Shown: positions 24,149-27,975 of the stretch, piece by piece
How the letters are laid out: every line of letters begins with the position of its first letter
How positions within the stretch are numbered: the stretch's first letter is position 1
Assembly (NCBI GenBank): GCA_021791455.1
Contig: JAJYWM010000424.1
Span: forward strand, 1 to 28,990
DNA length: 28,990 bases
Direction: 5' to 3'
Origin: a bacterium
Lineage (GTDB): Bacteria; Chloroflexota; Dormibacteria; UBA8260; Bog-877
Notes under the pieces: model-generated
Seen by the model: only the letters and a program-made list of their open reading frames with translations
Databases searched by the model: none
What the model was told of the DNA's origin: nothing
Translations under genes and position numbers: made by a program

Positions 24149-24649
24149 TCACGGCCAGCGCATCTGTCCGCGACGGCGCGCCAGCACCGCGGCCGCCTCC
24201 GAGCCCAGGGCTGCGCCGTGGCGGATGACGTCACCCAGGTCCACCGGCTGCGAGCGTTCGAACGGCTGCGGGCCAGGGTCGGCCAGGGCGTCCCAGATGC
24301 GCTGCCTGTACCACGGGAAGAGTGCGGGAGGAAGGTTGTCGGGCTCGGCCCACATGAGGCGGAGCGCCTCCCTGGTGCGGCGCAGAGTTCCCCCGGTCGG
24401 GTGGGCTCGGAAGGTATGGTCGATGCCGACCCTGATCCCCCGGAAGTGGTAGACGCCCGTGAGTCGATCGATGGCGATCTGCAGGCCGCATTCCTCGCGG
24501 GTCTCGCGCATCACGGTGAGGGCGGGATCCTCCCCCTCCGCGACGTGGCCTCCCGGCGGCTCCCATCCCGGGGGCCAGGGTCGGAGCTGCAACAGCACCC
24601 GGCCCAGATGGTCGACAATGACCCCCTGGGCTCCTACCACGCGTGCCAT
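24149..24649 (-). CDS. Nudix hydrolase
   Basis: 166 aa. A perfect Nudix box at residues 34-56: G-x5-E-x7-REUxEExGU, with REECGL equivalent visible as RETREECGL. The fold starts at VVGAQGVIVDHLGRVLLQLR. It hydrolyses a nucleoside diphosphate linked to another group. The substrate is unknown. The start ATG 24649 shares one base with the stop of the M50 protease gene (TGATG), so translation is probably coupled. The C-terminal about 45 residues after the core are Arg/Ala-rich. Confidence 0.92.
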   Translation of the reverse strand: MARVVGAQGVIVDHLGRVLLQLRPWPPGWEPPGGHVAEGEDPALTVMRETREECGLQIAIDRLTGVYHFRGIRVGIDHTFRAHPTGGTLRRTREALRLMWAEPDNLPPALFPWYRQRIWDALADPGPQPFERSQPVDLGDVIRHGAALGSEAAAVLARRRGQMRWP

Positions 24650-25434
24650 CAGGTGACCAGGCAGGAGTGCGCGAGGGCGGCGCCAAGTGCGGACGAATTG
24701 GGGTAGAACAGCCACTCGAAATTTGGGAAGAAGGTCTGGGGAACTGGCCCGGTCACCACGTGCGACCAGAGCCAGTCGAAAGCTCCGTACAGCGGATACG
24801 AGAGGGGGCTGAAGCCCCCCAGCAGGTTGGGCAGGACCAAGACCACCAGGATGAGCGTGATGTAGATCCCATTGCGATTGCGCTGGGCCCACAGGAACGG
24901 CCCTGGAAACTGCCTCCCCAGGAGCCCTTCTGCGACTCCGAATCCGTCCAACGGAGGGATGGGCAGCAGGTTGAACACGAAGAGGATGACGTTGACGTAG
25001 AAAGCCTCAACCAAGAACCAGTAGACGAAGCCCAAGAGGGGCAGATGGAAGCTGGGGACCAAGCAGGTGGCGAGCCAAGGGCTGGTCGCCAGCAGTACCC
25101 GCAGTAGCACTCCGAGCCCGGCCGCCACGAGCAGATTGCTGAGGGGCCCCGCAAACGACACCCAGGCCCGCTGCCGGCCGCTTCTGACGTAGGCGGGGTT
25201 GAACATGACGGGGCGGGCGAATCCGAACCCTATCACCAGCAGCATCACCAGGCCAAGCGGGTCCACCTGATCGGCGGGGTTCAGACTGAGCCGCCCCTGC
25301 CGCCTGGGCGTGGGATCTCCGTATCCCGTTGCCGCGGCAGCGTGGCAGTACTCGTGGACGGTGAATCCGAGTGCGATCCCGGGAATGGCGAAGACGACCA
25401 GGATCAGGTAGAACTCGACCCCGCTGCCGACCAC
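24649..25434 (-). CDS. M50 family intramembrane metalloprotease (site-2 protease type)
   Basis: 261 aa, five to six membrane helices. The zinc site HEYCH (His27, Glu28, His31) lies in the first helix region (IALGFTVHEYCHAAAA). The third ligand is expected in LLPIPPLDG, the equivalent of the NPDG motif. No PDZ or CBS domain is present, as in the compact M50 subgroup. Such proteases cleave membrane helices of regulatory or damaged proteins. GTG 25434 is 6 bp after the small gene upstream. It belongs to the cluster with the Get3-like ATPase. Confidence 0.92.
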   Translation of the reverse strand: MVGSGVEFYLILVVFAIPGIALGFTVHEYCHAAAATGYGDPTPRRQGRLSLNPADQVDPLGLVMLLVIGFGFARPVMFNPAYVRSGRQRAWVSFAGPLSNLLVAAGLGVLLRVLLATSPWLATCLVPSFHLPLLGFVYWFLVEAFYVNVILFVFNLLPIPPLDGFGVAEGLLGRQFPGPFLWAQRNRNGIYITLILVVLVLPNLLGGFSPLSYPLYGAFDWLWSHVVTGPVPQTFFPNFEWLFYPNSSALGAALAHSCLVT

Positions 25435-25440
25435 CCCAGG

Positions 25441-25674
25441 TCAGTCCAGCGGGATCTTGCGGACCCGGCGCGAGTCGGCGGGTTCCGGTGCCTGCCCCTG
25501 GTGGTGCTCCAGCGCCGCGATAGCCGCGAGCAGCAGTTCCCGCTGGGCGCGGATCAAATGTATCCGGGCCTCCGGCGGCAGTAGCTCCTCCACCCCCCGG
25601 GTCGCATGGGCCACCATGTCTCCGAGGACATGGGCGGCCGACTGGCCCACGCTGGCTGGGGGTGTGCGAGGCAT
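25441..25674 (-). CDS. Small alpha-helical protein, 77 aa, unknown
   Basis: Not recognised. It is predicted mostly helical: a Gly/Ala/His-containing helix SAAHVLGDMVAHATRGVEEL and a second helix PEARIHLIRAQRELLLAAIA with ALEHH, then a charged tail ending RRVRKIPLD. No membrane helix or Cys is present. ATG 25674 shares one base with the stop of the ArsA-like gene (TGATG), so the two are probably made together, and it could be a partner of the ATPase. That role is inference from position. Confidence 0.7.
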   Translation of the reverse strand: MPRTPPASVGQSAAHVLGDMVAHATRGVEELLPPEARIHLIRAQRELLLAAIAALEHHQGQAPEPADSRRVRKIPLD

Positions 25675-26843
25675 CAGCTCGCCCTCCCGAAGAGGATCAT
25701 CAGCTTGCCGTCCTCCAGGCGGGCGGACCTGGTCTCCTTGCCACGCAGCACGCGAGGGAGGGAGATCTCCCTCTTGTAGGGGCCAACACTTATGTAGAGC
25801 TCGTCATCCTTCTGCGTCAGCTCGACCTCTTCCCGGCTGACGAAGGGAATCTGCATGGTCAGCAGGTACTCGTCACCCGTCTTGCGCAGGGTCTGCGACT
25901 TGGCCCGGTAGAGGATGTCCTCCGGGGGGGTGTCGCCGAACAATGACCCGCCCAGCTCATCGAGGTGCTCCACCCCCACTATCTCATGATCGAAGAGGCG
26001 CGACTGCAGGATGGGCACTGGCGAGAAGGCCTCGTCGACCTGCTCAGAGTACTTGGCCTGCACCCGGCGCCAATCGCTGAAGTAGCCCTCCCCGACCTCC
26101 TTTGGCAGAACCCGGTTCACCAAAACCGCGTCCACCTGGTAGTCATAGAGGTTGAGGTAGGTGAAGGCTCGTTGCGCCTCCTTGATCACCATCTTCTCCA
26201 GGTTCAGCACCAAGCGCACGGTGCAAGTCTTGGGGTCGGACAGCACCTCCTTCATCGAGTCCAGGTCCACCAGCAACTGGCGCACCGAGCCGTAGATCTC
26301 GTCACTCGGGAGCGGGACTCCAATGAACGGTTGCACCATCGGCCGGGCCATCTTCATCACCCGCCGCTCGATGGGAAAGATCTTGTTCAGATACCAGCGG
26401 GCAACGTCCGGAAAGGCGAGCAGTTGCAGGGTCTCTCCGGTGGGGGCGCAGTCCACCACCAGCACATCGAACAGCCCCTGCTCGGAGTGGCGTCGGATCC
26501 ACATCAGGCTGGCCACCTCCTCCATCCCGGGCGGGGTGGCGAGCTCCTCGGCGATGATGTCGTCCACACCCTGGGAGTTGAACAGCGAAGCCAGGTACTC
26601 GTGGATCTTCTCCCAGTGCCCCTCCATCTCATGGAGGGCGTTGACCTCCTGGGCAAACAGGTTCTCCCCCACCTGGATCGGCTCCGGGCCGATCTCGCAG
26701 TCCAGCGAGTCCCCCAGGCTGTGAGCGGCATCGGTGGAGATCACGAGAGTCTTGAGTCCACGCTTGGCGCAGCGCACCGCGGTGGCGGCTGCGATGGTGG
26801 TCTTGCCGACGCCACCCTTGCCGGTGTAGAGGATCACCCGCAT
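25674..26843 (-). CDS. ArsA/Get3 (TRC40)-family ATPase with C-terminal HSP20-like domain
   Basis: 389 aa. The deviant Walker A GKGGVGKTT (residues 8-16) is followed by switch I STDAAHSLGDSLD and switch II VVDCAPTGETL, both diagnostic of the ArsA/Get3 dimeric ATPases. A helical subdomain rich in Met and hydrophobic residues lies between about 70 and 210 (NKIFPIERRVMKMARPMVQP). Residues about 322-389 form an alpha-crystallin-like beta-sandwich (EYLLTMQIPFVSREEVELTQ, ISVGPYKREISLPRVL, LEDGKLMILF). Eukaryotic relatives insert tail-anchored membrane proteins, bacterial ArsA drives arsenite export. No ars genes are nearby, which favours a targeting or chaperone role. ATG 26843 has a TATACT -10 only 6 nt upstream, predicting leaderless mRNA. 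Confidence 0.93.
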   Translation of the reverse strand: MRVILYTGKGGVGKTTIAAATAVRCAKRGLKTLVISTDAAHSLGDSLDCEIGPEPIQVGENLFAQEVNALHEMEGHWEKIHEYLASLFNSQGVDDIIAEELATPPGMEEVASLMWIRRHSEQGLFDVLVVDCAPTGETLQLLAFPDVARWYLNKIFPIERRVMKMARPMVQPFIGVPLPSDEIYGSVRQLLVDLDSMKEVLSDPKTCTVRLVLNLEKMVIKEAQRAFTYLNLYDYQVDAVLVNRVLPKEVGEGYFSDWRRVQAKYSEQVDEAFSPVPILQSRLFDHEIVGVEHLDELGGSLFGDTPPEDILYRAKSQTLRKTGDEYLLTMQIPFVSREEVELTQKDDELYISVGPYKREISLPRVLRGKETRSARLEDGKLMILFGRAS

Positions 26844-26849
26844 GGGCCG

Positions 26850-26855
26850 AGTATA
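26850..26855 (-). promoter_or_regulatory. -10 element for leaderless ArsA/Get3-like gene
   Basis: On the minus strand TATACT ends 6 nt before ATG 26843, so transcription should start at or within one base of the ATG. No ribosome site exists in the 6-nt gap. It lies inside the 44-bp gap after the upstream gene, so the ATPase can be expressed independently. Confidence 0.6.
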
Positions 26856-26887
26856 GGGACCGGTCCCCAGTTCCCCTCCGGGGGACC

Positions 26888-27358
26888 TCAGTGGATGAAG
26901 ATCAGCCCCAGGATCACCAGCGCCAGCATCGCGAGCGAGACCCAGATGACTCCCCGGACATCCATTCGGAGATAGGGAGTGCGGTCCAGGGGCACGCCAG
27001 GACTGTCATCGAGAGGCTCCAGGTTGGCCTCCTGGCGACGCCTCAACTCCGCGCGGCCGGCGATCCTGGTGCGCTTGGGAAGCAATGACTCCGAGGCTCC
27101 GGTGGGCGGAGCTCCATCAGAGATGATCTGTTCTTCCCGCGCCTCGGCGGCGCCACGCCGAGGCAGGCCAGAGGACGCTGGTTGAGCCACGGTGCCCTCG
27201 TTGGGAGACGCCGCCCCCTCAGGGAGCCGCTGCTCGGCCGCTGTCGGCCCATCGGGGACCGACCCGGCCGCCTGCTGCGGGACGGCCGTGGAACTCCGGG
27301 GCGCGCCTGGACGCTTCCTGGGTGGGGTCGTCCCCCTGCGCTTGGTACGTCTGGCCAA
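26888..27358 (-). CDS. Tail-anchored-type membrane protein, unknown function
   Basis: 156 aa, no named family recognised. The N-terminal 25 residues are strongly basic (MARRTKRR, PRKRPGAPR). A long Ala/Pro/Gly/Glu-rich, probably disordered region follows, then a charged stretch (LPKRTRIAGRAELRRRQEAN, LEPLDDSPGVPLDRTPYLRM) and one C-terminal membrane helix (about 136-155: GVIWVSLAMLALVILGLIFI) followed by a single His. With no signal peptide and the only helix at the very end, the layout is that of a tail-anchored protein with a cytoplasmic body. TTG 27358 has GGAG 6 nt upstream. It lies 44 bp before the Get3/ArsA-like gene on the same strand. Confidence 0.75.
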   Translation of the reverse strand: MARRTKRRGTTPPRKRPGAPRSSTAVPQQAAGSVPDGPTAAEQRLPEGAASPNEGTVAQPASSGLPRRGAAEAREEQIISDGAPPTGASESLLPKRTRIAGRAELRRRQEANLEPLDDSPGVPLDRTPYLRMDVRGVIWVSLAMLALVILGLIFIH

Positions 27359-27406
27359 TTGCGGCTCCGCTGAATGGCCCCGCGGGGCTCCTAGTGAGGC
27401 GGCGCC

Positions 27407-27412
27407 AGTTTA
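27407..27412 (-). promoter_or_regulatory. Candidate -10 element for the tail-anchored protein gene
   Basis: The minus strand reads TAAACT. A start about 7 nt downstream would give a leader of about 42 nt that includes the GGAG site before TTG 27358. No good -35 is visible. Confidence 0.35.
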
Positions 27413-27975
27413 CCCAAACGCCCCGGCGGGTAGTTCAGAGGACGGTGCAGGCAGCGAGCGCCGACGGGAGGGGTTGTGTTACTTGGCGAAGGAGGGGAAC
27501 GAGGAAGTGCCAGCACCCACTGCCTGCGTGGGCGATGCGTGTGGGGCCACATCTTGTGCCCGCACAGTATTCAACCACACAATCTAGTGGGACGCAAGTG
27601 GTTCGTCACATTTTCTTCAAACCCACCTTCCGCAGCATCGGTCCTTGTCCTCGGGTTCACTCGGACCGCTTGGCGTCGGGGTCACGGCAAGTCTGGGGCG
27701 GCAGCCTGGGCCGGCAGGGTAGGCTGGTGCCCGCCAGGCCGCGCGGTGGGGCGGGCCGTCTGTGCCGACCGACGAAGGTTCGGACGCATCCGCGGCGGCG
27801 GGTTTGAGGTCAGGACCCTAGCCCCGTCTCTCGGGCAAGGGGGCGGAGGGCCAGTCCACACTTGGGCTGCCAGGACAACGGCGGAGCCTGCGCTCCCCCG
27901 CCTCCTCGTCAGTAGAGGGGACGGCCCCGTCGTGATCGGGGGAGAGCCCCCGAATGATCCGAGGCCAAGGGGCGG
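27413..27975. other. 563-bp stretch without a supported gene
   Basis: Open frames on the plus strand here (the longest runs 27476-28048 and overlaps the VOC gene) lack any recognisable domain, ribosome site or plausible composition. Minus-strand frames are broken by stops. I see no tRNA, riboswitch or insertion-sequence ends. The stretch is a little less GC-rich than its surroundings near 27560-27640 (TATTCAACCACACAATC, CACATTTTCTTCAAACC). It contains one GC-rich hairpin at 27936. Confidence 0.5.
27936..27953. terminator. GC-rich hairpin after the VOC gene, weak terminator candidate
   Basis: TCGGGGG and CCCCCGA pair perfectly over 7 bp around the loop AGAG. It lies 23 bp beyond the stop of the minus-strand VOC gene. 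No T-tract follows on either strand, so factor-independent termination is doubtful. Confidence 0.35.

What the first reader, a model, noticed from the sequence alone, without database searches (positions are those of the whole stretch)
24649..27412. Possible bacterial tail-anchored protein targeting and quality-control module
Four adjacent minus-strand genes fit together. One encodes a protein whose only membrane helix is at the extreme C-terminus. The next is a Get3/TRC40-family ATPase with an added HSP20-like chaperone domain, then a 77-aa helical protein overlapping the ATPase stop by one base, then an M50 intramembrane protease. In eukaryotes Get3 delivers tail-anchored proteins. No arsenic-resistance gene is nearby, which argues against an ArsA role. 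Seen: gene order, overlaps, motifs and helix position. Inferred: that the tail-anchored protein is a client, the 77-aa protein a partner, and the protease a remover of mis-inserted helices.
Basis: partly seen in the sequence, partly recalled or inferred. Interest (0 to 1): 0.75.

Follow-up and report, generated by a model that had tools for sequence, protein, structure and literature searches.

The report
Get3-like ATPase with IxI-tailed partners
A bacterial relative of the ATPase that delivers tail-anchored membrane proteins in our own cells is encoded beside a tiny protein whose last residues look like a plug for the ATPase's chaperone domain, which suggests how such bacterial targeting machines may be assembled and controlled.

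Summary
In detail: four adjacent minus-strand genes encode a tail-anchored protein, a Get3/TRC40-fold ATPase with a C-terminal alpha-crystallin (HSP20-like) domain, a 77-aa helical protein and an M50 protease. The reading changes. The widely conserved core is the ATPase plus the small protein (Dormibacterota, Chloroflexota, Methylomirabilota, Firmicutes, one Chitinispirillaceae genome). In Clostridia the small protein matched in 7 of 8 genomes with the ATPase (one a truncated frame) and 0 of 140 without; in Bacilli 5 of 9 against 0 of 191. All 94 distinct small ORFs (45 aa or more) found with a model lacking the tail end in [IVL]x[IVL] plus one or two residues, 84 acidic. In Firmicutes a MarR regulator upstream carries the same tail (33 of 33). 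Background is 0.8%; the ATPases lack the tail. In small heat-shock proteins such a tail plugs the beta4/beta8 groove of an alpha-crystallin domain, so I propose docking in trans on the ATPase. Two AlphaFold read-through tests were inconclusive or weakly consistent. The tail-anchored protein is a plausible client or receptor, found beside the ATPase only in Dormibacterota-type loci. The protease role is not supported.

The parts
26888..27358 (-). tail-anchored protein, 156 aa, K/R-rich N-terminus, Pro-rich middle, single C-terminal membrane helix
26894..26953 (-). C-terminal transmembrane segment of that protein (residues about 136-155)
   Evidence: sequence; hydropathy of relatives
25674..26843 (-). 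Get3/TRC40/ArsA-family ATPase, 389 aa, with C-terminal HSP20-like domain
   Evidence: fold of the L120 relative
25689..25877 (-). alpha-crystallin (HSP20-like) domain PF17886, residues 323-385, no IxI tail of its own
25441..25674 (-). 77-aa helical small protein, proposed adaptor; one-base overlap with the ATPase stop
25444..25455 (-). codons of the C-terminal tail I-P-L-D of the small protein (residues 74-77)
   Evidence: tail in relatives
24649..25434 (-). M50 (site-2-type) intramembrane metalloprotease, 261 aa, GTG start; same operon, link to the core weak
24149..24649 (-). Nudix hydrolase gene, one-base overlap with the protease stop: the operon continues
   Evidence: sequence

Best explanation
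The core is a two-component, membrane-protein-handling chaperone: a Get3-fold ATPase whose hydrophobic chamber would hold a helix such as a tail anchor, plus a small helical adaptor. The adaptor's C-terminal tail (I/V-x-I/V/L, usually followed by an acid) docks into the beta4/beta8 groove of the ATPase's alpha-crystallin domain, which has no tail of its own, and so brings the adaptor, or whatever it holds, to the ATPase. In Firmicutes a MarR regulator encoded just upstream bears the same tail and would compete for the same groove, so that occupancy of the ATPase is read out as transcription: feedback control. In Dormibacterota the upstream gene is instead a tail-anchored protein, most likely a dedicated client or the membrane receptor. 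Shown: gene order, co-occurrence, the tail and its absence from the ATPase, tail-anchored topology, Get3d-like fold of a relative. Inferred: docking, client identity, competition, direction of control.
Against: No direct evidence of docking. In the ATPase-stop-small fusion the tail was assigned strand but at pLDDT 47-49. In the MarR-stop-ATPase fusion the tail block had pLDDT 72 with a two-residue bridge, against 42-59 in the read-through linker, but the preceding helix end had 71 as well; no coordinates are given, so the pairing partner is unknown, and the tail is better covered by the alignment than the linker. No natural ATPase-small fusion was found. 49 of 91 ATPase-bearing genomes of the G029-phylum sample gave no small-protein match, and three loci of multi-copy genomes had none within the 3.2 kb held. 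Five genomes of that sample have a small-protein match without a strong ATPase match. One of the seven Clostridia matches (G334) is a 40-aa frame cut short before the tail, and two Bacilli loci (L170, L173) show no small protein. A few tails are not acidic (10 of 94) or run on by extra residues (KINISKE, KIDIEY). Fisher tests ignore kinship.
Confidence: 0.55

Rival explanations
1. The IxI-acid tail is a general signal for something else (a degradation tag, or a tail for the cell's ordinary small heat-shock proteins), and the operon partners carry it independently of the ATPase's HSP20-like domain.
For: Shorter proteins of heat-shock size (open frames of about 140-190 aa) that weakly match PF17886 occur in many of these genomes, so another groove is available.
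Against: The small protein follows the ATPase, not those genes: 33 of 48 matches are directly downstream of the ATPase, and of 55 Clostridia genomes with any PF17886 match the 7 with a small-protein match are all among the 8 with the ATPase.
Confidence: 0.2
2. The first reader's module: a dedicated tail-anchored targeting and quality-control unit of client, Get3, small partner and M50 protease.
For: All four genes together in 17 of 27 assessable Dormibacterota-type loci; Get3d from plants and Nostoc is reported to bind a tail-anchored protein (PMC10248533, abstract and passages).
Against: The tail-anchored gene and the protease were not found beside the ATPase in other groups scanned; the protease is missing in 4 of 27; the operon runs on into Nudix and exchanger genes.
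Confidence: 0.15
3. A metal- or oxyanion-handling ArsA-type ATPase with neighbours of unrelated function.
For: The ATPase is in the ArsA superfamily.
Against: Single-domain; arsenical-pump model far below cut-off (86.2 against 650 bits); no ars transporter family in the window ORFs scanned; the conserved partners are not transporters.
Confidence: 0.05

Closest known systems
Get3d / NosGet3d (alpha-crystallin-domain Get3 of plants and photosynthetic bacteria)
   Same: Get3 fold followed by a C-terminal alpha-crystallin domain; the model of a relative aligns with 8egk over residues 1-388. The domain's role was called unclear by its authors (PMC10248533 passages).
   Different: NosAFP equivalog model 146 bits against a cut-off of 325; P-loop and switch motifs look intact, whereas Get3d is described as having an incomplete active site (abstract); encoded with an IxI-tailed partner, which the passages I read do not mention.
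Archaeal and eukaryotic Get3/TRC40
   Different: EGYF where 3zq6 has CEFC, so no CXXC motif; extra alpha-crystallin domain. Other GET partners were not searched for.
IXI/IPV binding to small heat-shock proteins, including BAG3 in trans
   Same: Same short hydrophobic-x-hydrophobic tail, same kind of domain to receive it (PMC4823740 and PMC8047445 passages).
   Different: Here the tail would be at the extreme C-terminus, usually followed by an acid, on two unrelated bacterial operon partners, and the receiving domain is fused to a Get3 ATPase.
Single-domain ArsA homologues without ars genes (Castillo and Saier 2010)
   Same: Single-domain ArsA homologues (their clusters 8-13) whose context gave no clue to function (PMC2963123 passages).
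   Different: Here context does give a clue: a conserved small protein and a MarR with a shared tail. Whether these ATPases fall in those clusters was not tested.

Membership tests
Get3/TRC40 | Get3/ArsA nucleotide-binding fold with GKGGVGKT loop and switch motifs | tested here: met
   fold of relative L120
Get3/TRC40 | CXXC zinc-binding motif of the homodimer (recalled as typical of eukaryotic and archaeal members) | tested here: not met
   alignments to 3zq6 and 3ug6 show no cysteines at that place
Get3/TRC40 | binds and delivers tail-anchored proteins | not testable with these tools
   needs biochemistry
Get3d | C-terminal alpha-crystallin domain | tested here: met
   PF17886 4.5e-20; seven strands and NosGet3d alignment for relative L120
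Get3d | NCBIfam NosAFP equivalog cut-off | tested here: not met
   146 bits, cut-off 325
ArsA arsenical pump ATPase | arsenical pump equivalog model | tested here: not met
   86.2 bits, cut-off 650
ArsA arsenical pump ATPase | arsenite transporter gene nearby | tested here: not met
   none among window ORFs scanned
tail-anchored protein | single membrane helix at the extreme C-terminus | tested here: met
   120 of 120 listed relatives, by hydropathy
tail-anchored protein | Sec-independent, post-translational insertion | not testable with these tools
   needs insertion assay
M50 protease | PF02163, HExxH and LDG motifs | tested here: met
   motifs in the translation
small heat-shock IXI tail system | C-terminal IxI/V motif on the partner | tested here: met
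small heat-shock IXI tail system | docking in the beta4/beta8 groove of an alpha-crystallin domain | tested here: inconclusive

The most novel reading that the evidence does not exclude
Bacteria of several phyla run a GET-like chaperone whose assembly and control use a C-terminal IxI-acid docking code: a small adaptor and, in Firmicutes, the operon's own MarR regulator compete for the groove of the ATPase's alpha-crystallin domain, so that client load is read out directly as transcription, and in Dormibacterota a dedicated tail-anchored protein is the operon's client or receptor.
Probability: 0.35. Interest if true: 0.8.

Novelty: new variant of a known kind. Interest (0 to 1): 0.62.

Why it matters
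The alpha-crystallin domain of Get3-type ATPases has been described as without a clear role (PMC10248533), and no partner for the bacterial ATPases turned up in my literature searches (open-licence papers only). A conserved tail on two unrelated operon partners names a concrete binding site, two partners and a simple peptide-binding test, some of them in strains with culture-collection numbers (record titles). It also hints that binding in trans of IxI tails, known from BAG3 in animals, has a bacterial counterpart.

Tried and rejected
Own genome: none is held. A mixed alignment of fusions with many separate small proteins put 44 of 47 small rows inside the ATPase, so it was not folded; A5 used six in-frame read-through loci instead. 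A first MarR-ATPase alignment split the tail and was replaced by A7. Search for natural ATPase-small fusions: none at E 0.001 (low sensitivity). Small proteins against Pfam and NCBIfam: the window's 77-aa protein gave only a Pfam match at E 0.022 below cut-off and no NCBIfam match, three relatives only weak or no Pfam matches; six database relatives carry a precomputed PF27253.1 that my Pfam scan did not report and whose name no call gave. Arsenic role and gas-vesicle role set aside: no such genes among the window ORFs scanned. Shorter proteins also match PF17886, so I took the ATPase as open frame of about 350 aa or more, or best E of 1e-14 or less in the G029-phylum sample; that is a proxy. 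The adjacency count 33 of 48 and the 27-locus table were counted by hand. Rows dropped before the 27-locus count: duplicates L082, L088, L089, L092, L093, L095, L098, L102, L103, L123, L124, L129, and four loci with too little upstream DNA (L007, L012, L029, L130). L017 has a broken ATPase frame and was kept. In one search, 97 of 105 ATPase tails were parsed; two flagged (L018, L079) are mis-parses on reading, and of the eight unparsed none ends in the motif, though L054 has LSL five residues before its end. One search counts only ORFs of 45 aa or more, so it leaves out the truncated G334 copy; the copies in L172 and L175 did not reach its threshold. The three Bacilli genomes G386, G459 and G513 were not read for a MarR.
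Full report
What is there. The four genes are real and as described. The 156-aa product of 26888-27358 has a K/R-rich start, a proline-rich middle and one membrane helix ending one residue from the C-terminus. A profile search found 351 relatives and listed 120; all 120 have a single C-terminal hydrophobic segment and none a second. The ATPase at 25674-26843 has PF02374 and PF17886 domains and passes TIGR00345. The 77-aa product overlaps its stop by one base, and the M50 protease follows with HExxH and LDG motifs. The operon then continues: the protease stop shares a base with the ATG of a Nudix gene, and an exchanger gene lies beyond. No arsenic transporter family was seen in the window ORFs scanned.

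What is conserved. A scan of species genomes returned the best 80 of 235 relatives. Tail-anchored gene, ATPase, small gene and protease recur in order in Dormibacterota-type loci. Of 27 distinct loci with usable flanks, all 27 have the small gene, 23 the protease, 21 the tail-anchored gene directly upstream, and 17 all four (hand count). In a subset a DUF1003 gene takes the upstream place (Pfam: L021 over cut-off, L121 just below). Outside this group neither the tail-anchored gene nor the protease was found beside the ATPase, where flanks range from about 150 bases to 6 kb. What persists is the ATPase and a small helical protein, mostly 67-94 aa, that starts close to the ATPase stop, in Methylomirabilota, Firmicutes, Chloroflexota and a Chitinispirillaceae genome. 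Many Chloroflexota loci of the first 80 have no such neighbour, but 13 of their genomes have one elsewhere or on another contig (hand count).

The tail. These small proteins are very divergent but end alike: KIPLD, RIKVE, KVSIE, NITIE. To avoid circularity I built a model without the last ten residues; it found 60 of 8878 ORFs in the first 80 loci, including 11 outside the seed, all with the tail. Over all loci it found 94 distinct ORFs of 45 aa or more, 94 with [IVL]x[IVL] followed by one or two residues and 84 ending in an acid; for loci fetched later, 34 of 34. In Firmicutes the gene upstream of the ATPase is a MarR regulator (Pfam 2.8e-13 for L038). It ends KKIEIE, RKIEID and the like: 33 of 33 found with a tail-less model, with both isoleucines invariant in 23 of 23 rows after a variable linker. 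Background among the other ORFs of 130 aa or more in the first 80 loci was 5 of 657. More divergent MarRs in four Bacilli loci without a small-protein match still end RIQIED, KINIDE or KINIEE (Pfam MarR confirmed for L171). Exceptions: the G334 copy is a 40-aa frame without tail, and L172 and L175 have extra residues after it (KINISKE, KIDIEY).

Co-occurrence. In 148 Clostridia genomes the ATPase was in 8 and the small protein matched in 7, all among the 8 and all directly downstream, one of them truncated; reading the eighth shows a divergent copy between two tandem ATPases. In 200 Bacilli genomes the ATPase was in 9 and the small protein in 5, all among the 9; reading the other four shows a small ORF with the tail in two (L171, L172) and none recognised in two (L170, L173). 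In 151 genomes of the phylum of G029 it was 42 of 91 with the ATPase against 5 of 60 without. In one family of 11 genomes the small protein was in 7; of the other four, three had only weak PF17886 matches (best E 1.5e-7 to 1.1e-6) and the fourth had a copy below threshold. Of 47 genomes already known to hold the ATPase, 40 had a match. Kinship is not corrected for.

Interpretation. In small heat-shock proteins a C-terminal IXI motif fills the groove between strands beta4 and beta8 of a neighbouring alpha-crystallin domain (PMC4823740, passages), and BAG3 uses IPV motifs to bind HSP27 in trans (PMC8047445, passages). An ATPase that has the domain but not the tail, next to genes whose products have the tail but not the domain, is most simply explained by docking in trans. 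The tail-anchored protein is then a plausible client or receptor in Dormibacterota; Get3d is reported to bind a tail-anchored protein and its alpha-crystallin domain's role is called unclear (PMC10248533, abstract and passages; section 8). The MarR would couple occupancy to transcription. The protease's role in quality control is not supported.

Limits. Docking, client and control are inferred. Counts by hand are marked. The literature library holds open-licence papers only; searches found no description of these partners, which is not proof of absence.

Noticed in passing
window 27440-27600 (minus): A non-coding element upstream of the tail-anchored gene, 83-89% identical over 156-161 bp in nine distinct relatives (L001, L002, L003, L005, L006, L008, L010, L015, L019; L129 repeats L015) and partly in L013, with a promoter-like TTGCGN-N17-TTnAAT and a strong hairpin of about 19 pairs with a C-rich loop; no Rfam match over the gathering score. 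Too conserved for covariation (0 of 32 pairs with both sides changed). Candidate leader or small RNA.
   Followed up: partly
window 27399-27418 (minus): A second conserved motif, TTTGGGTAAACTGGCGCC or close variants, some 40-60 bases before the tail-anchored start, in the 10 sequences aligned (weakest in L008); promoter-like.
   Followed up: no
L168: Two tandem ArsA-HSP20 ATPases with a divergent IxI-tailed small protein between them in a Clostridia genome.
   Followed up: partly
L112, L114, L118: Three genomes of the G029-phylum sample (G095, G158, G174) with six PF17886 matches each, whose ATPase copies read here have no small protein within the 3.2 kb held; their partner is unknown.
   Followed up: no
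L018, L021, L119, L121, L122: A DUF1003-like gene lies directly upstream of the ATPase in place of the tail-anchored gene (Pfam run for L021 and L121 only; the others by resemblance, and L018 is unsure); in L021 the tail-anchored gene is about 1 kb further up.
   Followed up: partly
P0001-P0004, P0006, P0013: Database relatives of the 77-aa protein carry the precomputed Pfam accession PF27253.1, not reported by the Pfam copy scanned here.
   Followed up: no
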